From a virus, in the IMG/VR virus record IMGVR_UViG_3300044707_000467, positions 1 through 26,844 of that record: 26,844 nt of DNA, one strand, 5' to 3'. Under the pieces are notes generated by a model. The model was not told the origin of the DNA, ran no database searches, and was given only the letters and a program-made list of their open reading frames with translations. The translations under genes and the position numbers were made by a program. Below are positions 1 to 13,357 of the stretch, one piece after another (the stretch's first letter is position 1; every line of letters begins with the position of its first letter).

Positions 1-212
1 TTTCCACGAAGCCCGCTTACATTTCCACTAATTAGGCTTACATCTCCACGAAGCCGCCTTACATTCCCACTAATTACGCTTACGTTCCCACTAATTGCGC
101 TTACATTTCCACTAATTGCGCTAGCATCTCCACTGATTCCGCTCACATCTCCAATTAACTTGCTTGTATCGCCTATTAATGTTTTAGGTTTTCTTGTTAA
201 TTTAGGTTTCAT
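1..212 (-). CDS. Heptad-repeat (xGDVSxx) protein, truncated by window edge
   Basis: The gene begins at the complement of 210-212 and runs off the left edge, so only 70 codons are visible. After an 11-residue leader (MKPKLTRKPKT) there are eight complete seven-residue units of the form [LI]-x-G-[DN]-[VAT]-S-x, plus the start of a ninth, all in perfect register. The leader is nearly identical to that of the gene immediately upstream (213..584), and the two are adjacent paralogues: the upstream TAA abuts this ATG. The Shine-Dalgarno AAGGAG lies inside the last codons of the upstream gene, implying translational coupling. Regular glycine and hydrophobic spacing suggests a beta-solenoid or similar repeat fold (inference). 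No function is assigned. The C-terminus is not visible. Confidence 0.75.
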   Translation of the reverse strand, partial: MKPKLTRKPKTLIGDTSKLIGDVSGISGDASAISGNVSAISGNVSVISGNVRRLRGDVSLISGNVSGLRG

Positions 213-584
213 TTACTCCTTCCCAATTAAATCTTTAATATCAATACCAGCTTCTCTTTCTTCTTGAGTAATCTCACACTTGTCTAAATCGCCGTATATT
301 TCACTTGCTCCACCGCGTAAGCCAGTTATATTTCCACTTAAACCGCCTACATTACCAAAAAGACTTGATGCATCTCCTTTTATCCCCGTTACATCTCCAC
401 GAAGCCCAGTCACATCACCAAAAAGCCCGCTCACATCTCCACGGATTCCGGTCATATCTCCACTAATTCCGTGTGCTTCTCCCCATAGCCTTGTTGCATC
501 CCCAAAAAGATTGCTTGTGTCGCCTGTTAGTTGGCTTGTATCGCCTATTAATGTTTTAGGGTTTCTTGCTAATTTAGGTTTCAT
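213..584 (-). CDS. Heptad-repeat (xGDVSxx) protein with acidic C-terminal cap
   Basis: This 123-residue protein has an 11-residue leader (MKPKLARNPKT), exactly 13 consecutive seven-residue units (residues 12-102, consensus [LI]-x-G-[DN]-[VAT]-[ST]-x) and a 21-residue tail, CEITQEEREAGIDIKDLIGKE without its last residue, rich in acidic residues. No unit is shifted or interrupted. The start has a strong Shine-Dalgarno (GGGGAGGA, about 6 nt upstream), and a leftward terminator sits just upstream at 599..630. Proteins of this appearance are familiar to me from phages and bacterial genomes as uncharacterised repeats (recollection, not a search). The regular Gly/hydrophobic pattern is compatible with a stacked beta-solenoid. 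It is not a pentapeptide-repeat protein because the period is seven. Function unknown; it may be a surface or binding protein. Confidence 0.8.
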   Translation of the reverse strand: MKPKLARNPKTLIGDTSQLTGDTSNLFGDATRLWGEAHGISGDMTGIRGDVSGLFGDVTGLRGDVTGIKGDASSLFGNVGGLSGNITGLRGGASEIYGDLDKCEITQEEREAGIDIKDLIGKE

Positions 585-5059: not shown

Positions 5060-6073
5060 TTATAACTCTGTAAGTAAAGGCATCTGAAAAGTTTGCATTC
5101 GTTTTTCTATAACTTTAAACCAATGAGGATCTAATTCGATCCCAATAGGAAACCTCTTTAATTTTTCGGCTGCAACTAAGGTCGAGCCACTTCCAGCAAA
5201 ACAATCAAGCACTATAGCACCGGGACGAGTCGAGGCACTAATAATGTTCTCAAGCATCGCTGCAGGTTTTTCACAAGGATGCCTTCTATAACAAATATGC
5301 ACTGCAGGAAACGTCCAAACATCCGTGAAAGGTACTTTTGCCGACACCGAAAAAGGACGGCGTAGGTCTTCATACTCGCGGCGTAAATCGTCATATTCAC
5401 GGCGTAGGTCGTCATATTCACGGCGTAGGTAGTCCCCACCGTTGGCATTAAATAATTGGCGTAAAGTTGCGTAATGTTTAGCTGTTGGCAAAATCCACTG
5501 TTTTTGAGCAAACCAGTGGGACGCCATTTGCGTATTAGTACACTCATCCACTTGTTGCAGCGTAATGTTTGCTTTTTGCCTTTCCCCGTCTAAATATGCT
5601 CGCAAAGGCTCAAAAATAAATCCTCGTAGCTCATCACATTTAGCTGCGTAGCCAGCTTCTCCCTTAGTAATGTTATCTGCTCCGTAATGTTCACAAAAAA
5701 TAATCCGCTCAGATTCTGGAAAATAATGCCGCATAGTTTCTTTGCAGTTTAATCTGCTCCAACTATAACCGTTTTTATTCCAAACGATATGATTTAATAC
5801 ATTAAATCTTTCTCCCAGCATCACCTCTACCCGTGCCGCCATTTTAGAGGAGGCGAAGCAATACAGCGAGCCATTAGGCTTTAAAATACGCTGCCATTGC
5901 TCCGCCACTTGGTCGAGCCATGCTAGAAATTGAGCCGGTTTATCCCACTGCCGATCCCAATAATCAGCCTTTACTTTAAAATAGGGTGGATCGGTTATAA
6001 TAGCGTCAACTGAATTGGCTTCCATCGAAGCCATAACCTCGAGGCAATCCCCGTGATGTAGTGTGTATGTCAT
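5060..6073 (-). CDS. DNA (adenine-N6 or cytosine-N4) methyltransferase, beta-class, with internal heptad tract
   Basis: This 337-residue S-adenosylmethionine-dependent DNA methyltransferase has catalytic motif IV DPPY (residues 28-31) near the N-terminus. The SAM-binding FAGSG follows near the C-terminus in VLDCFAGSGSTLVAAEKLKR, an order typical of the beta class. DPPY favours adenine-N6. The middle third, the presumed target-recognition region, contains seven-residue repeats LRREYDD encoded by 21-bp DNA repeats (5358..5435). The first 31 residues are almost identical to those of the methyltransferase encoded immediately upstream. No restriction endonuclease gene was recognised nearby, so it probably acts as an orphan enzyme protecting or marking phage DNA (inference). 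No clear Shine-Dalgarno precedes the ATG; the short gap from the upstream stop suggests coupled translation. Confidence 0.85.
   Translation of the reverse strand: MTYTLHHGDCLEVMASMEANSVDAIITDPPYFKVKADYWDRQWDKPAQFLAWLDQVAEQWQRILKPNGSLYCFASSKMAARVEVMLGERFNVLNHIVWNKNGYSWSRLNCKETMRHYFPESERIIFCEHYGADNITKGEAGYAAKCDELRGFIFEPLRAYLDGERQKANITLQQVDECTNTQMASHWFAQKQWILPTAKHYATLRQLFNANGGDYLRREYDDLRREYDDLRREYEDLRRPFSVSAKVPFTDVWTFPAVHICYRRHPCEKPAAMLENIISASTRPGAIVLDCFAGSGSTLVAAEKLKRFPIGIELDPHWFKVIEKRMQTFQMPLLTEL
5358..5435 (-). repeat. 3.7 tandem 21-bp repeats inside the methyltransferase
   Basis: Units start at 5358, 5379, 5400 and 5421 (last one partial). The 5400 unit reads CGGCGTAGGTCGTCATATTCA without its last base, with one to a few differences in the others. 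Each unit encodes one charged heptad, L-R-R-E-Y-[DE]-D, so gain or loss of units keeps the frame and changes the length of a probable alpha-helical spacer. Confidence 0.85.
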
Positions 6074-6099
6074 GTTTAGCTTTAAGTTGATGTATTAAA

Positions 6100-7104
6100 T
6101 TAAAATAGTTTTTGCGGTGCGTAGGTAGCATGTTTTATTCGAGCTTCTGCAATGCGTAAGTATTCCTCTTCTAATTCTATCCCAACAAATTTAAAGCCTT
6201 CTAGGATTGCAGCCTTGCCGGTGCTGCCACTCCCCATAAAAGGGTCAAGCACGACTCCGCTTAATGGTGTTACTAATCGGCACAAGTAGCGCATAAGATT
6301 AATTGGTTTAACTGTGGGATGAATGTTTTTATTTCTAGGGATTGGACGGCCTCGAGAGTCTTTCCCTTTTAATGTTCTTTTAGCTTGTTTTTCTTCAAAT
6401 TCATCAAGCCCTTCGTCGCGGTCACGCTGAGTAGCCTTAGAGCAATAAAAGAACCGGGCGGCGGAGCCGGTGTCGGCATACCCAGAGACCACCCCAGGTA
6501 AGCCACTGGCGCCGCCGTGGTAGCCCATGGTTCCGTTTGGGTCGCGTACACCACAAGTACTTGAGGCCGCCTGCGGAAACAACCCCATAACCTCATCGCT
6601 TCCATCATGGGTAAAATTAGCTGGCCAGCGGCCGAAAGTAAGAGCTCCTACCCGGCATCCATCTATATTGATTGCGCCAGTGCCATACTTCAGCACATTG
6701 GCGGCTACAGTGCCCTTTAAGGGCTTGCGGGCCATGATCACGGGCTCCCATGCCGGTTTAAGCGCAGTGCCCCAGCCTTGCCATTGGCCTTTAAGATTAT
6801 GCGACTTAGGGAAACCACTTGAGTAGACCCACATCACACAATCGCGAATCTCCCAGCCAGCATCCTCAATAGCACATGTTAACCGGTGAAATGTGCGAGT
6901 ACCGCCGAAGGCCAACAAGTGCGCTCCCGGTTTAGCGACTCGCAAAGCTTCTTGCCAAAAAGCCTTGCCCGGTACGCCACAATCCCAATTCTTACCCATA
7001 AAAGATAAACCATAAGGCGGATCAGTCACGATAGCATCAATCGAGTTGGCTTCCATTAAAACCATAACCTCGAGGCAATTTCCGTGATGTAGTGTGTATG
7101 TCAT
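6100..7104 (-). CDS. DNA methyltransferase, beta-class (second copy)
   Basis: This 334-residue enzyme has motif IV DPPYG (residues 28-32), followed by GLSFMGKNWDCGVP, a pattern common in phage N6/N4 methyltransferases. HPTVKPINLMRYL and the SAM-binding DPFMGSGSTGKAA lie near the C-terminus. The region between about 100 and 240 (WVYSSGFPKSHNL, INIDGCRVG) differs fully from the neighbouring enzyme, so the target sequence is likely different. The two genes share the leader MTYTLHHG[DN]CLEVM and near-identical 5' DNA. AAGG precedes the ATG. It is part of the leftward operon starting at 7467. Methyl target cannot be read from sequence. Confidence 0.85.
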   Translation of the reverse strand: MTYTLHHGNCLEVMVLMEANSIDAIVTDPPYGLSFMGKNWDCGVPGKAFWQEALRVAKPGAHLLAFGGTRTFHRLTCAIEDAGWEIRDCVMWVYSSGFPKSHNLKGQWQGWGTALKPAWEPVIMARKPLKGTVAANVLKYGTGAINIDGCRVGALTFGRWPANFTHDGSDEVMGLFPQAASSTCGVRDPNGTMGYHGGASGLPGVVSGYADTGSAARFFYCSKATQRDRDEGLDEFEEKQAKRTLKGKDSRGRPIPRNKNIHPTVKPINLMRYLCRLVTPLSGVVLDPFMGSGSTGKAAILEGFKFVGIELEEEYLRIAEARIKHATYAPQKLF

Positions 7105-7467: not shown

Positions 7468-7494
7468 AATATCCTCCGTCGATTATGTTTATAT

Positions 7495-7515
7495 GATGCA
7501 TTTATAAAATGTATC
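7495..7515. promoter_or_regulatory. Imperfect palindrome upstream of the leftward operon (putative operator)
   Basis: GATGCATTT-ATA-AAATGTATC has 8 of 9 arm positions matched. It lies 28 bp before the ATG of the 7467 gene, next to a minus-strand TTGACC (complement of 7516-7521) that could be a -35 element. A good -10 at correct spacing was not found, so the promoter is unproven. Confidence 0.4.
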
Positions 7516-7576
7516 GGTCAATAAAAATAAAAAAAATGATATTTTTTTAAAATATAATACTGTTTTAGAAAAAGCT

Positions 7577-7877
7577 GATGTAAATTACATGCCCTCATGC
7601 CCGGGGCGTCAAATGGGTGGTTTCAGGGGTGGTGAGAAAGCTGTGGAAAAGATAGATAAGTATATAATATATATAGATAATATTTTTTATTTCATTTTCA
7701 CTTCTCTCACACCCTTTTTTTTTCCGACACGCGGTTTTTTCTCTCGCTTCGTGATGTATTTATGCTTTTTTTTTACGGGTGTGACGGGTGTGAGGTTTGC
7801 TTAATAAAATCACACTAGTTAGATGCTTTTAATGTTCCTAAAATGACCACGGGCATCACGGGCATGTAATTTGCATC
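7577..7877. repeat. Long interrupted inverted repeat (27/28-bp arms)
   Basis: The left arm at 7577-7603 starts GATGTAAATTACATGCCC and continues TCATGCCCG. The right arm at 7850-7877, read on the other strand, starts GATGCAAATTACATGCCC and continues GTGATGCCCG. Apart from one substitution and a small change after base 18 they match. The arms are 246 bp apart. A second nested pair, CTCACACCC (7706-7714) and GGGTGTGAG (7786-7794), lies inside. Confidence 0.8.
7775..7866 (+). repeat. Two tandem 9-mer pairs, ACGGGTGTG x2 and ACGGGCAT[CG] x2
   Basis: ACGGGTGTG occurs directly repeated at 7775-7783 and 7784-7792. ACGGGCATC/ACGGGCATG occurs at 7849-7857 and 7858-7866. Both pairs share the ACGGG core, 9-bp period and orientation, like iterons bound by a replication initiator or repressor (inference). 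Confidence 0.7.
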
Positions 7878-7945
7878 AAATAATATCAAGGGGTTACGGT
7901 CAAAATCAGGCACTTACGAGCGCCAAAACGGCATTTTATTTTATT

Positions 7946-8070
7946 AGGTAAAACATAATGTTATCTAGTGAGACAGAAACGGTGGTTGGGTTCTGACAGG
8001 TAAAACATTGGTTGTAAAACGTCGGTCTAGTTCTACCAGATAAAACAATAGTTGACAAACGGCGTTTGAT
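7946..8070 (+). repeat. Degenerate direct repeats around [AG]G[GA]TAAAACA
   Basis: AGGTAAAACAT starts at 7946 and 7998, and AGATAAAACAA at 8038, giving spacings of 52 and 40 bp, close to whole helical turns. The last two lie in longer similar blocks, 7991-8030 and 8031-8070, each starting TTCT and containing GTTG..AAACG. The similarity is about two thirds, so these are degenerate binding-site arrays at best. Confidence 0.5.
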
Positions 8071-8080
8071 TTATATTAGT

Positions 8081-8096
8081 TAGAATGACCATTCTA
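8081..8096. promoter_or_regulatory. Perfect palindrome TAGAATG-AC-CATTCTA
   Basis: Seven-bp perfect arms flank a 2-bp centre. Its size and spacing fit a dimeric repressor operator. TTGACT, a -35-like hexamer, follows at about 8104, but no good -10 was found at 16-18 bp. Confidence 0.5.
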
Positions 8097-8232
8097 CTAG
8101 GGGTTGACTATCTTTTTTAGATGTAATAGGCGCAGCACTTTTTATTCCTTTAAAATTCCACTAATCGTTTAAATATAGCGAATCCCTATTTTACCTATTG
8201 ACAAACAAAAAAAAGTGATAGCGATTCTTACC

Positions 8233-8256
8233 TACTGAGAACTGTAATTCTCAGTA
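8233..8256. repeat. Perfect 9-bp inverted repeat TACTGAGAA...TTCTCAGTA
   Basis: The arms at 8233-8241 and 8248-8256 enclose CTGTAA. The right flank is an A run. Because neither strand has a T run on the exit side it is not a terminator in either direction; an operator or a structured RNA is possible. Confidence 0.6.
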
Positions 8257-8345
8257 ACTAAAAAAAAGTAAATTGAAATAGAAATTGCAAAAACAAATTG
8301 AAACTTACTGGCATATTTTGTAGGGTGCCCTATCCTCAAAAAGTG

Positions 8346-8380
8346 TTAGTATAAAAGTATACTAATGTTTCTCAAACATT
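8346..8380. repeat. Two adjoining perfect palindromes
   Basis: TTAGTATA-AAAG-TATACTAA (8346-8365) is followed, sharing two bases, by AATGTTT-CTC-AAACATT (8364-8380). Two stacked dyads within 35 bp, about 170 bp before the rightward promoter, look like adjacent protein-binding sites or mutually exclusive hairpins. Confidence 0.65.
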
Positions 8381-8442
8381 GTTTTAAAACTAGATGCGCC
8401 TAGGGCGTAGGTGTGCTTGGTGCTGGCCAAAATTCCCAGCGG

Positions 8443-8504
8443 AAAAACTCGAGGGGGGGTATGGGGTCTTTGCTTTTTGGTAAAGTCCTTGTCTACCCTC
8501 CCCG
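8443..8504 (-). terminator. Large GC-rich hairpin, probable leftward terminator
   Basis: GGGGGGGTA (8453-8461) pairs with TACCCTCCCC (8494-8503) with one G-U. A nested stem of GGTCTTTGC with GGTAAAGTCC adds length. On the minus strand it is followed by CTCGAG and then five T residues (A run 8443-8447). It would stop antisense transcription entering the control region from the right. On the plus strand there is no T run. Confidence 0.55.
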
Positions 8505-8547
8505 AAAGATTTTAGCCCTCACTTTCGCCTCAAGCTCCGCGCTTACC

Positions 8548-8576
8548 TTGACGAACTTTATATATACATATATAAT
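8548..8576 (+). promoter_or_regulatory. Sigma70-type promoter of the rightward gene block
   Basis: TTGACG at 8548-8553 and TATAAT at 8571-8576 are separated by exactly 17 bp. This is the best promoter match I found in the window. Transcription would start near 8583, giving a leader of about 20 nt containing GGAGGAGG before the ATG at 8603. No obvious operator overlaps it. Confidence 0.8.
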
Positions 8577-8602
8577 CATCAAACGATGAAGGAGGAGGCG
8601 CT

Positions 8603-8842
8603 ATGGATATATTTTCTATGTTTACCGGCTCAACGGCTGGCATTGCTGCTTTGGTTGTATTGTTTGCTATGGTGGTGAAGAATCTAGGTGGTGCATGGGA
8701 GCGTGGCGTAATTATAGTCTCGCTATTTATTGGGGGGATATATTTAGCTAGGACGCTTAACGTGCAGCATCAACAAAGAATAAAATACGCTCAGATGAAA
8801 TCTGAAGAGCGCAAAAGTATATGGGGGGGTATTTTCAAATGA
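8603..8842 (+). CDS. Small membrane protein, two membrane segments (79 aa)
   Basis: This is the first gene after the promoter, with a very strong Shine-Dalgarno (GGAGGAGG). Residues about 8-25 (GSTAGIAALVVLFAMVVK) and 34-50 (RGVIIVSLFIGGIYLAR) are hydrophobic, predicting two membrane passes. A charged cytoplasmic-looking tail (QHQQRIKYAQMKSEERKS) follows. Size and topology resemble class II holins, but position far from the endolysin argues for caution. It could instead be a membrane partner of the anchored nuclease encoded two genes on. It overlaps the next gene by 4 nt (ATGA). Confidence 0.7.
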   Translation: MDIFSMFTGSTAGIAALVVLFAMVVKNLGGAWERGVIIVSLFIGGIYLARTLNVQHQQRIKYAQMKSEERKSIWGGIFK

Positions 8843-8949
8843 TAGCAGGTGGAGAGTTATCGCATTTTGGGTTTTTTACTGGTGGAGTATTTTTAGGGAT
8901 TGCTTGTGGTGCTTTAATATCAATGGCTATTTTTTCACTTTCACTATGA
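8839..8949 (+). CDS. Single-pass mini membrane protein (36 aa)
   Basis: This ORF joins its neighbours by ATGA overlaps at both ends, strong support for translation. It reads MIAGGELSHFGFFTGGVFLG followed by IACGALISMAIFSLSL, essentially one hydrophobic glycine-rich helix. No family recognised. The coupled membrane-protein/nuclease arrangement suggests a small envelope complex (inference). Confidence 0.6.
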   Translation: MIAGGELSHFGFFTGGVFLGIACGALISMAIFSLSL

Positions 8950-9350
8950 GTTTTGACCAGCTAGCACTTATTTGCATTGGCTCAGGGGTGGTAGCTGGGC
9001 AGTTTATCTCGCCTGTAGTGCTGTGGGCTTGCAGGATGCGCCACGTTGTCCGAATCATTGACGGTGACACTATAGAGATACGCGGTAGTTTTTTTGCAAG
9101 AGAAGCCAAGCGTGTGACTCTTAGGCTTAATAGGATTGATGCTTCGGACAAAGAGCCGACTAAAACGGAAGCTACTAAGTTTTTACGAAGCAAGATTGGT
9201 AAGATTGTAAAGGTTAAACTTATTGGTCGGGATAAGTATGGGAGGACATTGGCTGAGATATTTTATCCTATTCCTTGGATAGATATAAATATAAATGACC
9301 TGATGGTTAAAGCTGGGCATGCTAGGTATTACGACGGGGGGAAGAGATGA
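8946..9350 (+). CDS. Membrane-anchored thermonuclease (SNase-like)
   Basis: Residues 34-130 match the staphylococcal-nuclease fold. Metal-binding IDGDT gives D39 and D41, RLNRID gives R60 and D65, and DKYGRTLAEIF gives R100; these correspond to D19/D21, R35/D40 and R87 of the Staphylococcus enzyme. The usual general-base glutamate (E43) appears to be aspartate (D68), which may lower activity. Residues 5-28 form one hydrophobic anchor, so the nuclease domain probably faces the periplasm. I chose ATG at 8946 (ATGA overlap with the preceding gene) over a TTG 14 codons earlier. Possible roles are degradation of host or competing DNA, or entry exclusion (inference). Confidence 0.8.
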   Translation: MSFDQLALICIGSGVVAGQFISPVVLWACRMRHVVRIIDGDTIEIRGSFFAREAKRVTLRLNRIDASDKEPTKTEATKFLRSKIGKIVKVKLIGRDKYGRTLAEIFYPIPWIDININDLMVKAGHARYYDGGKR

Positions 9351-9643
9351 GTCTTATTGATTGTGGTCAATGGTTTATTATGGGCTTGGCTGGTGGGTGG
9401 GCTATTGGCTTTTCAATGAAGATGATAGCTTTTAAGCGTGCCTTTAGAAAATGGGGACCTACTCCCGAGTCTTTGAATGAGTTTTTAGATAAAGAGTTAA
9501 AGATGTTTGATTCTCTTACTGAGCGCAATATCGCTCAGCAAGAGATGGTTAAAATATGCGAATTAAAACGCAGGTTGATAGAGAGCGGCCGTGTTGGTTG
9601 GTCGGAAATGGATGTCAATGACATGATTGGTCGAGTGTTATGA
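9347..9643 (+). CDS. Single-pass membrane protein of unknown function (98 aa)
   Basis: ATGA overlap links it to the nuclease gene. Residues about 7-24 (GQWFIMGLAGGWAIGFSM) form a hydrophobic anchor. The rest is charged and helical (LNEFLDKELKMFDSLTERNI) and likely cytoplasmic. It ends the first rightward cluster, followed 6 bp later by a terminator. No family recognised. Confidence 0.65.
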   Translation: MSLIDCGQWFIMGLAGGWAIGFSMKMIAFKRAFRKWGPTPESLNEFLDKELKMFDSLTERNIAQQEMVKICELKRRLIESGRVGWSEMDVNDMIGRVL

Positions 9644-9649
9644 TGTAAG

Positions 9650-9689
9650 CTTCGGGGGGAGCCATCTCTCCCTTCGAAGTTGTTTTTTT
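9650..9689 (+). terminator. Intrinsic terminator after the nuclease cluster
   Basis: CTTCGGGGGGAG (9650-9661) pairs with CTCCCTTCGAAG (9668-9679), the two central positions as G-U pairs. It is followed by TTGTTTTTTTA. It should strongly limit transcription from the 8548 promoter, so FtsK and the later genes need readthrough, antitermination or another promoter. Confidence 0.85.
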
Positions 9690-9745
9690 AATATAGAGAG
9701 CTTTTAAGTGTAAAAAGTTAGTTTTTTTATGGGGAGAGGAGGGAA

Positions 9746-11215
9746 ATGAGCGGAGAGAGGGGTTCAAGAGCTGGGAAGTTTATTGGCAAGAGGGATAGAG
9801 AGAGGGGTATATTTCAATTCCTAAGTTTAAAAAGCTGGTATAAACCTACTAAGTCAATACAGAGAGAGCGCAGAGAGGAGACGAAAATTCCTATCAAACG
9901 GTTAGATAAAAATATAGAAGCATGTTTGATTAGTCATGGGATACAAGGTAAGGTGATAAATTGCCATGAGGGCTCATCCGTTTGGACTTATGAACTACAG
10001 CTCAGCGCAGGTCAGAGAATAAAGAGCTTAATGGGGCTAGATGCTGAGCTGGCTATTTCATTAAAGACTTCGAGCGTGAGGGTTATCCCTTTATTAAACA
10101 GGGGCACTGTTGGAATAGAGATTCCTAAGACAAAGCGCAACCCTGTTTTATTCTCTGACGTTATTTCTAGTGTAGCCTTTGAAAGAAAGAAGGCAGGTAG
10201 AGATGCTTCTCTTTCTATAGCTTTAGGGAAAGATACACTTGGAAACGATGTTATAGTTGATTTGGCTACCCTACCCCATTTATTAATTGCGGGGGCTACT
10301 GGAACAGGTAAGTCTGTTTGCTTAAACGTCATTTTATTATCCTTCTTGAAAAGATACTCCCCGAAAGAGTTAGGGCTTATTTTAATTGACCCTAAGATAT
10401 TAGAATTTTGTTTATATGATAAATTGCCTCACCTTATGCATCCGGTGGTGATAGATGCTAATGTGGCTAAGAATGTTCTAAGCTGGTGTGTTCAGGAGAT
10501 GGAGTATAGGTACTCCCTTATGAAAGATAGTGGGGCAAGGAACATCCAAGAATATAATAGTTTAAATAAAAACGACATTCTAAAAAGGATTGTTGTAGTA
10601 GTTGATGAGCTAGCAGATTTGGTGCTATGCGGTGAGAAGTCTATAGTCGAGTCTATAACACGGCTAGCACAAAAGGCGCGTGCTGCTGGTATCCATTTAA
10701 TTCTTGCTACTCAACGACCTTCCGTTGATGTTGTCACAGGGCTTATAAAAGCGAACTTCCCTGCAAGGATAGCTTTTAGGGTAGCCTCTTCCATTGACTC
10801 AAGAGTTATTCTTGATAGCAAAGGAGCAGAAAAGCTCCTAGGTAAAGGAGATGCGTTGATGGTGCTTCCGGGAGGAGAAGGCCAGCAGAGGGTGCAGGTA
10901 TCGTATATTTCAGATAGTGAAGTTAAAAGTATATGTCAACAGATAACAGCTTCTTTAGCTCCCCAATACGAAGAGTCCCTTATAAGCTATGTAGAAACCA
11001 AGCCAGAGACTATCACGGGAAAGAATGGCGAGGAGTACGGGAAAGTCATAGAGTACGCTCAAGGACAAGAAGAAATAAGCGCATCAGAAATACAAGCGCA
11101 ATTCTCTATAGGCGTGGCAAAGGCCACGAAATATTTAAAACAGTTGATAGCGGACGGGATAGTTAGCGAGGAACTTGTTTCTAAGGGAAAGAGAAAAGTT
11201 ATCTGGAATAATTAA
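9746..11215 (+). CDS. FtsK/SpoIIIE-type DNA translocase
   Basis: This 489-residue motor carries the canonical FtsK core. An alpha-like domain spans about 45-135. The RecA-like domain has Walker A GATGTGKS (183-190), LILIDPK, LPHLMHPVV, Walker B VVVVDELADL (D287, E288), the LATQRPSVDVVTGLIKANFP stretch, and a GDALM segment. The C-terminal about 65 residues form the winged-helix gamma domain (ISASEIQAQFSIGVAKATKY) that in cellular FtsK reads oriented DNA sites. The N-terminal membrane domain is missing, replaced by about 45 basic residues. Shine-Dalgarno AGGAGG precedes the ATG. Cellular FtsK pumps double-stranded DNA in chromosome segregation. In a phage it could act in genome segregation, dimer resolution or DNA entry (inference). 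Confidence 0.9.
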   Translation: MSGERGSRAGKFIGKRDRERGIFQFLSLKSWYKPTKSIQRERREETKIPIKRLDKNIEACLISHGIQGKVINCHEGSSVWTYELQLSAGQRIKSLMGLDAELAISLKTSSVRVIPLLNRGTVGIEIPKTKRNPVLFSDVISSVAFERKKAGRDASLSIALGKDTLGNDVIVDLATLPHLLIAGATGTGKSVCLNVILLSFLKRYSPKELGLILIDPKILEFCLYDKLPHLMHPVVIDANVAKNVLSWCVQEMEYRYSLMKDSGARNIQEYNSLNKNDILKRIVVVVDELADLVLCGEKSIVESITRLAQKARAAGIHLILATQRPSVDVVTGLIKANFPARIAFRVASSIDSRVILDSKGAEKLLGKGDALMVLPGGEGQQRVQVSYISDSEVKSICQQITASLAPQYEESLISYVETKPETITGKNGEEYGKVIEYAQGQEEISASEIQAQFSIGVAKATKYLKQLIADGIVSEELVSKGKRKVIWNN

Positions 11216-11568: not shown

Positions 11569-11925
11569 ATGGAAAACTTCTCGGAAGTGAAAAGCCTTCT
11601 GGAAGATATCCGTAAAGACGTAAACAAGTTACATCCTGTTTTTGACCAGCTCGTTAAAGAGATACAAGAAGCAAGAAAAGAGCGCAGAGAACTAATCAAG
11701 ATTACTACAGGAAAGGGGCAAGTACCTTTAAGTGTAGTAATAGTGCTTATTGTGGCTATGGGAGGTACTCTCTTACTAGAAAAGCTACAAGGTAATGATT
11801 TTGAGATTTTAGGGTCAGGGCTTGGCGTATCTGGCTCCATCTCAGCAAAACAGCGGCGGAATCAAATACTACAGCAAGCTATAGAAACAAGGGAAAGTAA
11901 TGGCGAACTGGATAAAGATAATTAA
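11569..11925 (+). CDS. Coiled-coil membrane protein next to endolysin (118 aa)
   Basis: Residues 1-45 form a charged coiled-coil-like helix (EVKSLLEDIRKDVNKLHPVF, KEIQEARKERRELIK). Residues about 53-70 (PLSVVIVLIVAMGGTLLL) form one membrane helix, and a basic, Gln-rich tail follows. It overlaps the endolysin start by 26 nt. Position suggests a lysis accessory (holin or spanin-like) role, but the topology, with a long coiled coil before the membrane helix, matches no standard class I recognise. No clear Shine-Dalgarno precedes the ATG. Confidence 0.65.
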   Translation: MENFSEVKSLLEDIRKDVNKLHPVFDQLVKEIQEARKERRELIKITTGKGQVPLSVVIVLIVAMGGTLLLEKLQGNDFEILGSGLGVSGSISAKQRRNQILQQAIETRESNGELDKDN

Positions 11926-12415
11926 CCAGACAATTAAGCGCGAGGGTGGGCTTGCTAATAGGCCAGCTAATCAAGACCCCGGCGGCCTTACTAACTTTGG
12001 TATTACCCAATCTTTTTACGAGCAGAACGGCTATAAGGGCTCCGTGAAAGACCTTACTATAGAAAAAGCTAGAGAATTTTATAATAAAACAATCGTTGAG
12101 ACTTACCGATTAGAAGAACGGTTTGGATATGATGAATGGCTCTCTGAGTTTATGTTTGATTCTATCGTACATCATGGGATTAAAAACCCTATTTCATTTT
12201 TACAGATATGTTTAGCTTGTATATTACAAGATACAAAAATAATAGTTGACGGCATTTGGGGGGTCAATACTAAGCTAGCACTAGAGAAGGTTTATGATGA
12301 CTGTAAACCGAAGGTTTTAAAAGAGGCTTTAAAGGTTGCGCGGTATACCTACCTTTGGACGAGACCTCATGCTGGGCATAATCCCGGCTGGTTTTTTAGG
12401 GTAATAAACTTATGA
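11900..12415 (+). CDS. Endolysin, GH108-type N-acetylmuramidase
   Basis: The 171-residue enzyme has the GH108 signature REGGLANRPANQDPGGLTNF near residues 14-33, with the presumed catalytic glutamate in EGG at residue 15. A C-terminal peptidoglycan-binding-like region follows (VDGIWGVNTKLALEKV). It would cleave the glycan backbone during lysis. No signal peptide is visible, so it needs a holin or other export. AAGGGAAA precedes the ATG inside the upstream gene. Length fits the family. It is followed by the secreted protein gene with an ATGA overlap. Confidence 0.88.
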   Translation: MANWIKIINQTIKREGGLANRPANQDPGGLTNFGITQSFYEQNGYKGSVKDLTIEKAREFYNKTIVETYRLEERFGYDEWLSEFMFDSIVHHGIKNPISFLQICLACILQDTKIIVDGIWGVNTKLALEKVYDDCKPKVLKEALKVARYTYLWTRPHAGHNPGWFFRVINL

Positions 12416-13329
12416 CAATTAACTTTTATAAAAAGTTGTTGTTGTTTTTAATTTTATATCAGGGGGTTTATGCGGAATCGTATGCGCAGGGCATTGTCGG
12501 GACTAGTCCACTCTCGTTATTCCATCCGGACTTTAAATGTAGCTCGTTGCTTAACATTGCACACCGCCGAAAAGATTTTGCAATTGCAACTTTGTATAAG
12601 ACCTTTGGAACTAGCACAAAGTGTTTCGAACGAGTCTCCCTTATTAGAAAACGAATCACTAGAAAACACTATAACCGAAGAGGAAAAGTCCGAAGCAAGA
12701 CGCTCCGAAGTGTTGTCGAAATACATCTACTCAACGGCGCAGGCCGACGAAATAAACGTCTGGCACAACCTGAATTTAGACCGAAAACATCTAGCAAACG
12801 ATTTTGTAGTAGTATACGAAAACAGGATCCTGCACTTTTATATTCACTAGAGCGGTACTTAATATCAGTCAAAAACCTTATTAATAAACATCCTCATTTA
12901 GAGTGGCTAATCTCTCCTGAGCTAGAGTCTAATTGTTCCAATACCCAAGGTAAGACCCTACTAGGGATAGTCCAACAGTGGGCGATTAATAACCTTATAG
13001 AAGGTATTAAATATAGTTGGGTATGGAATCCATTAAAAGAGAAACGGATAGAAGGAGCGTATCATGAGCTTCACGGGTTTAACTGGCCTATAGCTCCTTG
13101 CATTTATAATTTTGATGGGCTTGATATAAAGATAGAAGGGAGAAACCCATTATCTAACAATATATCTATACATGATGCTAAGTGGATAATTAAAGAGCAA
13201 AAAAGAAGATGTGATTTTGTTTTTATCTGGACGAAGGAGATGAACGGCATTAGTAGTGATAAGTTTATTAGTCCACGTTTAAGAAAGGATTATAGTATTC
13301 CTTCATCAATTGACTTACTTTTAAAGTGA
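12412..13329 (+). CDS. Secreted protein of unknown function (305 aa)
   Basis: The N-terminus MTINFYKKLLLFLILYQGVY followed by A is a type I signal peptide with likely cleavage after A21. The mature part has a basic first half with the notable segment VEIHLLNGAGRRNKR and FHPDFKCSSLLNIA. The aromatic-rich second half contains YSWVWNPLKEK, GAYHELHGFNWPIAPCIYNF and WTKEMNG. Tryptophan/acidic-rich loops like these are frequent in carbohydrate-active secreted proteins, but I cannot name a family. ATGA overlap with the endolysin suggests a lysis or envelope role. Its 5' half contains a second open frame (12470..12850). Confidence 0.7.
   Translation: MTINFYKKLLLFLILYQGVYAESYAQGIVGTSPLSLFHPDFKCSSLLNIAHRRKDFAIATLYKTFGTSTKCFERVSLIRKRITRKHYNRRGKVRSKTLRSVVEIHLLNGAGRRNKRLAQPEFRPKTSSKRFCSSIRKQDPALLYSLERYLISVKNLINKHPHLEWLISPELESNCSNTQGKTLLGIVQQWAINNLIEGIKYSWVWNPLKEKRIEGAYHELHGFNWPIAPCIYNFDGLDIKIEGRNPLSNNISIHDAKWIIKEQKRRCDFVFIWTKEMNGISSDKFISPRLRKDYSIPSSIDLLLK
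12470..12850 (+). CDS. Possible embedded alternate-frame gene (126 aa)
   Basis: The ORF lies in another plus-strand frame wholly inside the secreted-protein gene, with AGGGGG 3 nt before its ATG. The product starts MRNRMRRALSGLVHSRYSIR, has a hydrophilic acidic middle (LLENESLENTITEEEKSEA) and no membrane helix. Embedded genes are typical for Rz/Rz1 spanins next to endolysins, but neither product here has the expected lipobox plus membrane-helix pair. The local DNA is poor in stop codons on both strands, so the frame could be open by chance. Confidence 0.25.
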   Translation: MRNRMRRALSGLVHSRYSIRTLNVARCLTLHTAEKILQLQLCIRPLELAQSVSNESPLLENESLENTITEEEKSEARRSEVLSKYIYSTAQADEINVWHNLNLDRKHLANDFVVVYENRILHFYIH

Positions 13330-13330
13330 T

Positions 13331-13357
13331 AGTATATTTATAAATAAACTTTTTTTT
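13331..13357 (+). terminator. Weak AT-rich terminator after the secreted protein
   Basis: AGTATATTTA (13331-13340) and TAAATAAACT (13341-13350) are 9/10 complementary and are followed by seven T residues after the final T of the arm. The stem is almost all A-T, so strength is doubtful. Confidence 0.4.

What the first reader, a model, noticed from the sequence alone, without database searches (positions are those of the whole stretch)
8603..9643. Envelope-nuclease cassette under the main promoter, closed by its own terminator
Four genes linked by ATGA overlaps encode a two-pass protein, a 36-residue membrane peptide, a membrane-anchored thermonuclease and another single-pass protein. A strong promoter and a strong terminator make this a separate unit, not part of the virion block. 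A membrane-tethered nuclease could degrade incoming DNA of competitors (superinfection exclusion) or host DNA at lysis.
Basis: inference. Interest (0 to 1): 0.6.

Follow-up and report, generated by a model that had tools for sequence, protein, structure and literature searches.

The report
Phage operon with membrane-anchored nuclease
A bacterial virus carries a compact, separately transcribed set of four genes that make three small membrane proteins and a nuclease tied to the membrane, and the sequence predicts the nuclease faces the inside of the cell, opposite to its secreted relatives, so it probably acts on DNA at the inner membrane.

Summary
Four genes (79, 36, 134 and 98 codons; 8603-9643, + strand) are joined by three successive 4-base ATGA overlaps. 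They lie between the only 11-of-12 sigma-70 promoter in the phage genome (8548-8576) and a strong intrinsic terminator (9648-9681). The third protein is an N-terminal membrane segment fused to a staphylococcal-nuclease (SNase) domain (Pfam E 3.8e-9; AlphaFold plus Foldseek agree). The other three have no relatives in any library searched.

By the positive-inside rule the nuclease faces the cytoplasm, whereas relatives with a hydrophobic N-terminus look exported. The catalytic glutamate (E43 of S. aureus nuclease) is aspartate here; 55 of 57 viral relatives keep glutamate. The four-gene order was found in only one other contig, of the same phage species, so conservation is unproven.

Best reading: an early operon that puts a low-activity, probably calcium-dependent nuclease on the inner face of the inner membrane, where DNA enters. 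Superinfection exclusion is my first choice (0.35). Rivals: a lysis-time DNase with holin-like partners (0.27), early host-DNA breakdown (0.2), a non-catalytic tether or passenger (0.15). It is a new variant of the phage SNase kind.

The parts
8548..8576 (+). sigma-70-type promoter TTGACG-17-TATAAT (11/12)
   Evidence: only 11/12 site in the genome sequence held; about 0.0017 per 100 shuffled bases
8603..8842 (+). gene A: 79 aa, two predicted membrane segments, basic C-terminal tail (predicted N-in/C-in)
   Evidence: no significant family match
8839..8949 (+). gene B: 36 aa, one predicted membrane segment; ATGA overlap with A; least certain gene
8946..9350 (+). gene C: 134 aa membrane-anchored SNase-family nuclease; no Shine-Dalgarno, ATGA overlap with B suggests translational coupling
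8964..9032 (+). membrane segment of C (residues about 7-29); 0 K/R before, R30, R32 and R36 after: N-out/C-in
9039..9347 (+). SNase (OB-fold) domain of C, residues 32-134; D41, R60, D65 and R100 kept, E43 equivalent is D68
9347..9643 (+). gene D: 98 aa, one N-terminal membrane segment, about 74-residue cytoplasmic, mostly helical, charged tail (35% K/R/D/E)
   Evidence: model low confidence
9648..9681 (+). intrinsic terminator closing the unit (T-run 9683-9689)
9746..11215 (+). context, not part of the cassette: FtsK/SpoIIIE-like translocase (motor and gamma domain), start of the next gene block

Best explanation
The four genes form one early, independently transcribed operon. It builds a small protein assembly in the host inner membrane and holds a staphylococcal-nuclease-type DNase on its cytoplasmic face. 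Most likely the tethered nuclease cuts DNA as it emerges into the cell from a later-arriving phage or plasmid (superinfection exclusion or entry restriction). SNase enzymes need calcium at levels far above those of resting cytosol, so the enzyme would idle until entry of DNA, or any membrane breach, lets calcium in locally; that would also spare the phage's own DNA. Shown by computation: gene layout, promoter, terminator, SNase fold, membrane segment, orientation by charge rule, E43D substitution. Inferred: early expression, assembly of A, B and D with C, calcium gating, and the biological target.
For: Strong host-type promoter plus own terminator, so expression need not depend on late genes. 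SNase domain by Pfam, PHROG, AlphaFold and Foldseek. The anchor is what distinguishes this protein: none of the 15 isolate-phage SNases read has a membrane anchor (14 have no hydrophobic N-terminus, Mcat8 has a signal peptide), and relatives with a hydrophobic N-terminus have export-type charge. Tethering implies the substrate is at the membrane. Soluble parts of A, C and D are all predicted cytoplasmic. A holin candidate (11569-11925) and the GH108 endolysin sit in another block, and podovirus AP-20-A also has its FtsK, holin and autolysin genes close together (PMC13299392). A membrane-anchored phage protein with a basic cytoplasmic tail that blocks another phage is known (PdpSau, PMC10127798), though it is not described as a nuclease.
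Against: No homology of A, B or D to any exclusion or defence family. E43 is replaced by D, so activity may be low or lost. Gene order seen only in one phage species. No expression data; early timing is inferred from the promoter alone. Calcium gating is from general knowledge of SNase, not tested.
Confidence: 0.35

Rival explanations
1. Lysis accessory: A (and D, B) are holin-like proteins, and C degrades leftover host DNA when the membrane is breached and calcium floods in, lowering viscosity and freeing progeny.
For: A (79 aa, 2 segments, N-in/C-in) and D (98 aa, 1 segment, N-out/C-in, basic residues after it, charged helical tail, ATGA overlap with its upstream gene) match in layout the LysF1a/LysF1b pair of mycobacteriophages Girr and NormanBulbieJr (PMC13056207). 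SNase genes sit in lysis cassettes of some phages: Arthrobacter phage Abba (holin, SNase, lysin A), Atuin (SNase, endolysin), viral contig L130 (VanY-like endolysin, holin-like, SNase). Small membrane-protein genes lie within two genes of phage SNases more often than of control genes (21/108 vs 9/191, p = 9e-5).
Against: The enrichment did not replicate in annotated isolates (12/59 vs 9/67, p = 0.34). Most phage SNases neighbour terminase, portal, homing-endonuclease or early genes instead. Endolysin is 2.2 kb away, behind a terminator and FtsK, with its own membrane-protein neighbour. A strong early-type promoter suits lysis genes poorly.
Confidence: 0.27
2. Early host takeover: the nuclease breaks down membrane-associated host nucleoid (or RNA) soon after infection, for nucleotides or shut-off.
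For: Early-type promoter; the relatives seen in isolate phages are mostly annotated simply as nucleases or endonucleases; two phage DNA methyltransferases are encoded next door, although SNase is not known to respect methylation.
Against: A tether is unnecessary for this; most phage relatives are soluble. SNase does not discriminate phage from host DNA. No nucleotide-salvage genes among the genes examined in the window or the rest of the genome.
Confidence: 0.2
3. C is not a working nuclease: the SNase fold serves to hold DNA at the membrane (or binds something else), or the cassette is a passenger.
For: The catalytic Glu is replaced (D68) and the conserved Pro is Ser, against 55/57 Glu and 53/57 Pro in relatives; an FtsK-type DNA motor without a membrane domain is the next gene.
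Against: D41, R60, D65 and R100 are kept and Asp is a conservative change; the frame is intact and the only variant position in the cassette is a third codon position in D.
Confidence: 0.15

Closest known systems
Staphylococcal nuclease family (PF00565), phage branch phrog_452
   Same: Fold, metal and arginine positions, C-terminal GGKR-type ending shared with many phage SNases
   Different: N-terminal uncleaved membrane anchor with inverted charge; E43 replaced by D; set within three small membrane-protein genes
Secreted SNases of bacteria and plasmids (for example the F-type plasmid thermonuclease, 41-43% identical over aligned residues)
   Same: SNase domain after a hydrophobic N-terminus
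   Different: Those have K/R before the hydrophobic segment (signal peptide, exported); here the charges predict a cytoplasmic domain
LysF1a/LysF1b holin-like pair of mycobacteriophages Girr and NormanBulbieJr
   Same: Two-pass about 80-aa protein, then a one-pass N-out/C-in protein with a charged tail, joined to the upstream gene by an ATGA overlap
   Different: No sequence relation established; no nuclease between them; they adjoin lysins, these do not
Membrane proteins of superinfection exclusion or abortive infection (T4 Imm, from memory; PdpSau)
   Same: Small phage-encoded membrane proteins
   Different: None is known to me as a nuclease; no homology found
Holin-SNase-endolysin order in Arthrobacter phage Abba
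   Same: SNase gene overlapping a small membrane-protein gene
   Different: Abba's SNase is soluble with intact Glu and sits directly before the endolysin

Membership tests
SNase family (PF00565) | Significant profile match over the domain | tested here: met
   Pfam 37.4 bits against a cut-off of 21; phrog_452 E 2e-17
SNase family (PF00565) | OB-fold as in S. aureus nuclease | tested here: met
   AlphaFold domain pLDDT about 86-93; Foldseek best matches SND1 and SNase, E about 6e-6
SNase family (PF00565) | Catalytic set D21, R35, D40, E43, R87 (S. aureus numbering) | tested here: inconclusive
   Four of five kept (D41, R60, D65, R100); E43 is Asp
SNase family (PF00565) | Calcium-dependent DNase/RNase activity | not testable with these tools
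   Needs the purified protein
Superinfection exclusion systems | Blocks a second phage's DNA entry or establishment | not testable with these tools
   Needs infection tests
Superinfection exclusion systems | Homology to a known exclusion or defence protein | tested here: not met
   No match for A, B or D to an exclusion or defence family in Pfam, PHROGs, NCBIfam or PADLOC; C only as SNase
Holin / lysis cassette | Small protein with 1-3 membrane segments | tested here: met
   A, B and D by hydropathy
Holin / lysis cassette | Match to a holin family | tested here: not met
   None in Pfam, PHROGs or NCBIfam
Holin / lysis cassette | Directly adjacent to and co-transcribed with endolysin | tested here: not met
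   GH108 endolysin starts at 11900, past the terminator at 9648-9681 and FtsK; co-transcription by read-through not excluded
Secreted thermonuclease | Signal peptide (basic n-region, then hydrophobic core) | tested here: not met
   No K/R before the segment, three after, no AxA-type cleavage site

The most novel reading that the evidence does not exclude
A nuclease-based entry-exclusion module: a phage tethers a calcium-gated SNase to the cytoplasmic face of the inner membrane, with dedicated small membrane partners, so that leakage accompanying DNA injection or membrane breach switches it on exactly where foreign DNA enters.
Probability: 0.15. Interest if true: 0.7.

Novelty: new variant of a known kind. 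Interest (0 to 1): 0.4.

Why it matters
Phage SNase genes are common (hundreds of GenBank phage records match) and to my knowledge their role is mostly untested. A version with an uncleaved, inverted membrane anchor inside its own operon ties the enzyme to a place, the inner face of the membrane. That turns a vague annotation ('thermonuclease') into a small set of testable roles: excluding later phages, clearing DNA at lysis, or holding DNA at the membrane.

Tried and rejected
Searching IMG/VR with A, C, D, FtsK, terminase and portal returned only the same phage species at 99.9% identity, apart from distant terminases, so no syntenic comparison was possible.

The weak NCBIfam match of A to FxsA (E 0.009, 16 bits against a cut-off of 40) is treated as membrane-composition noise.

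An initial idea that phage SNases belong generally to lysis cassettes was dropped. PHROG tallies show mixed neighbours, and the membrane-protein enrichment did not hold in isolates.

The paper search for E43D kinetics found nothing usable; the effect of this change on activity is from general knowledge, not cited.

The fold of D alone is low confidence (pLDDT 52) and was not used beyond 'mostly helical'.

Full report
WHAT IS THERE. The window is part of an uncultivated virus record. Three IMG/VR contigs of the same species match it at 99.9% over 8.4-16.7 kb aligned stretches. Contig G001 (37.8 kb) runs from window position 10764 through the rest of the genome and back to window position 8515, so the genome is circularly permuted and about 40.0 kb long. 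It has a portal protein, terminase, GH108 endolysin, an internal transglycosylase-like protein, SSB, Sak4 and primase. The finding sits at the start of the rightward block, after a 1.1 kb non-coding stretch.

THE UNIT. Genes A (79 aa), B (36), C (134) and D (98) are joined by three successive ATGA overlaps. The promoter 8548-8576 is the only 11/12 sigma-70 match in the genome sequence held, and the terminator 9648-9681 folds at -21.8 kcal/mol. A ten-of-twelve site at 13310-13338 precedes the structural genes, so the cassette need not be the leader of the late block. A has a good ribosome site and D a fair one; C has none, which suggests coupling to B. One position in the four genes differs between the window and G002 (9589), at a third codon position of D; a second difference (9656) keeps a terminator pair.

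THE NUCLEASE. C has an SNase domain (Pfam 37.4 bits; phrog_452 E 2e-17). An AlphaFold model on 38 sequences (C and viral relatives) gives the OB-fold with pLDDT about 90 in the domain and below 50 in residues 1-24. Foldseek returns SND1 and S. aureus nuclease. Against 57 aligned relatives, D41, R60, D65 and R100 match the conserved set, but D68 stands where 55 have Glu, and S67 where 53 have Pro. In S. aureus nuclease this Glu is E43, a catalytic and metal-site residue; its change to Asp is known to me as damaging, but I could not cite a figure.

ORIENTATION. C has no K/R before its hydrophobic segment and three after it. Of the relatives with a hydrophobic N-terminus, all but two or three start-site-uncertain ones carry K/R before it, as signal peptides do. 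None of the 15 isolate phage SNases has a membrane anchor (14 have no hydrophobic N-terminus; Mcat8 has a signal peptide). By the same rule D is N-out/C-in and A is N-in/C-in. So the soluble parts of A, C and D are predicted to face the cytoplasm. This is a prediction from charge only.

RELATIVES AND CONTEXT. A and D have no detectable relatives outside this species. The SNase gene occurs in many phages in many places: beside terminase, portal, homing endonuclease, early genes, and sometimes in the lysis cassette (Abba, Atuin, L130). Small membrane-protein genes were enriched near SNase genes in metagenomic contigs (21/108 against 9/191, p = 9e-5) but not significantly in isolates (12/59 against 9/67, p = 0.34). 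The first test was exploratory, so I treat the link as suggestive.

HOW IT MOST LIKELY WORKS. The anchor, early-type promoter and own terminator argue for an early assembly acting where DNA meets the inner membrane. I favour exclusion of incoming DNA (0.35). The layout match of A and D to LysF1a/LysF1b (PMC13056207) keeps a lysis role close behind (0.27). Early host-DNA breakdown (0.2) and a non-catalytic tether or passenger (0.15) follow. Need for calcium is a known property of SNase (PMC5362813 notes its calcium dependence); gating by calcium entry is my inference.

VERDICT. Observation confirmed. New variant of a known kind; interest 0.4.

Noticed in passing
9746-11215: FtsK/SpoIIIE-like DNA translocase with motor and gamma domains but no membrane segment, placed before the lysis genes; a similar grouping is reported for Sinorhizobium podovirus AP-20-A (PMC13299392).
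   Followed up: partly
5060-7104 (- strand): Two tandem paralogous DNA methyltransferases starting with nearly the same peptide (MTYTLHHGxCLEVM).
   Followed up: no
1-584 (- strand), continuing in contig G001: Tandem paralogous proteins made of repeats like SGDVSGLRGDVS; at least three copies in G001, a possible source of assembly breaks.
   Followed up: no
7468-8602: 1.1 kb AT-rich stretch without convincing genes between divergent gene blocks, with G-runs and short repeats; candidate origin or regulatory region.
   Followed up: no
8516-10763: The near-complete contig G001 lacks exactly this stretch (its two ends), which holds the promoter, cassette and the first part of FtsK; this could be an ordinary assembly break or strain variation.
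   Followed up: partly
11569-11925: 118-aa protein with one membrane segment after a basic coiled-coil-like N-terminus (predicted N-in/C-out), directly before the endolysin: candidate holin.
   Followed up: partly
12412-13329: 305-aa protein with signal-peptide-like N-terminus, ATGA overlap with the endolysin gene, no family match.
   Followed up: no
L130:4272-5368: Metagenomic phage lysis cassette with VanY-like endolysin, holin-like protein, SNase and lipoprotein-like gene in close succession.
   Followed up: partly
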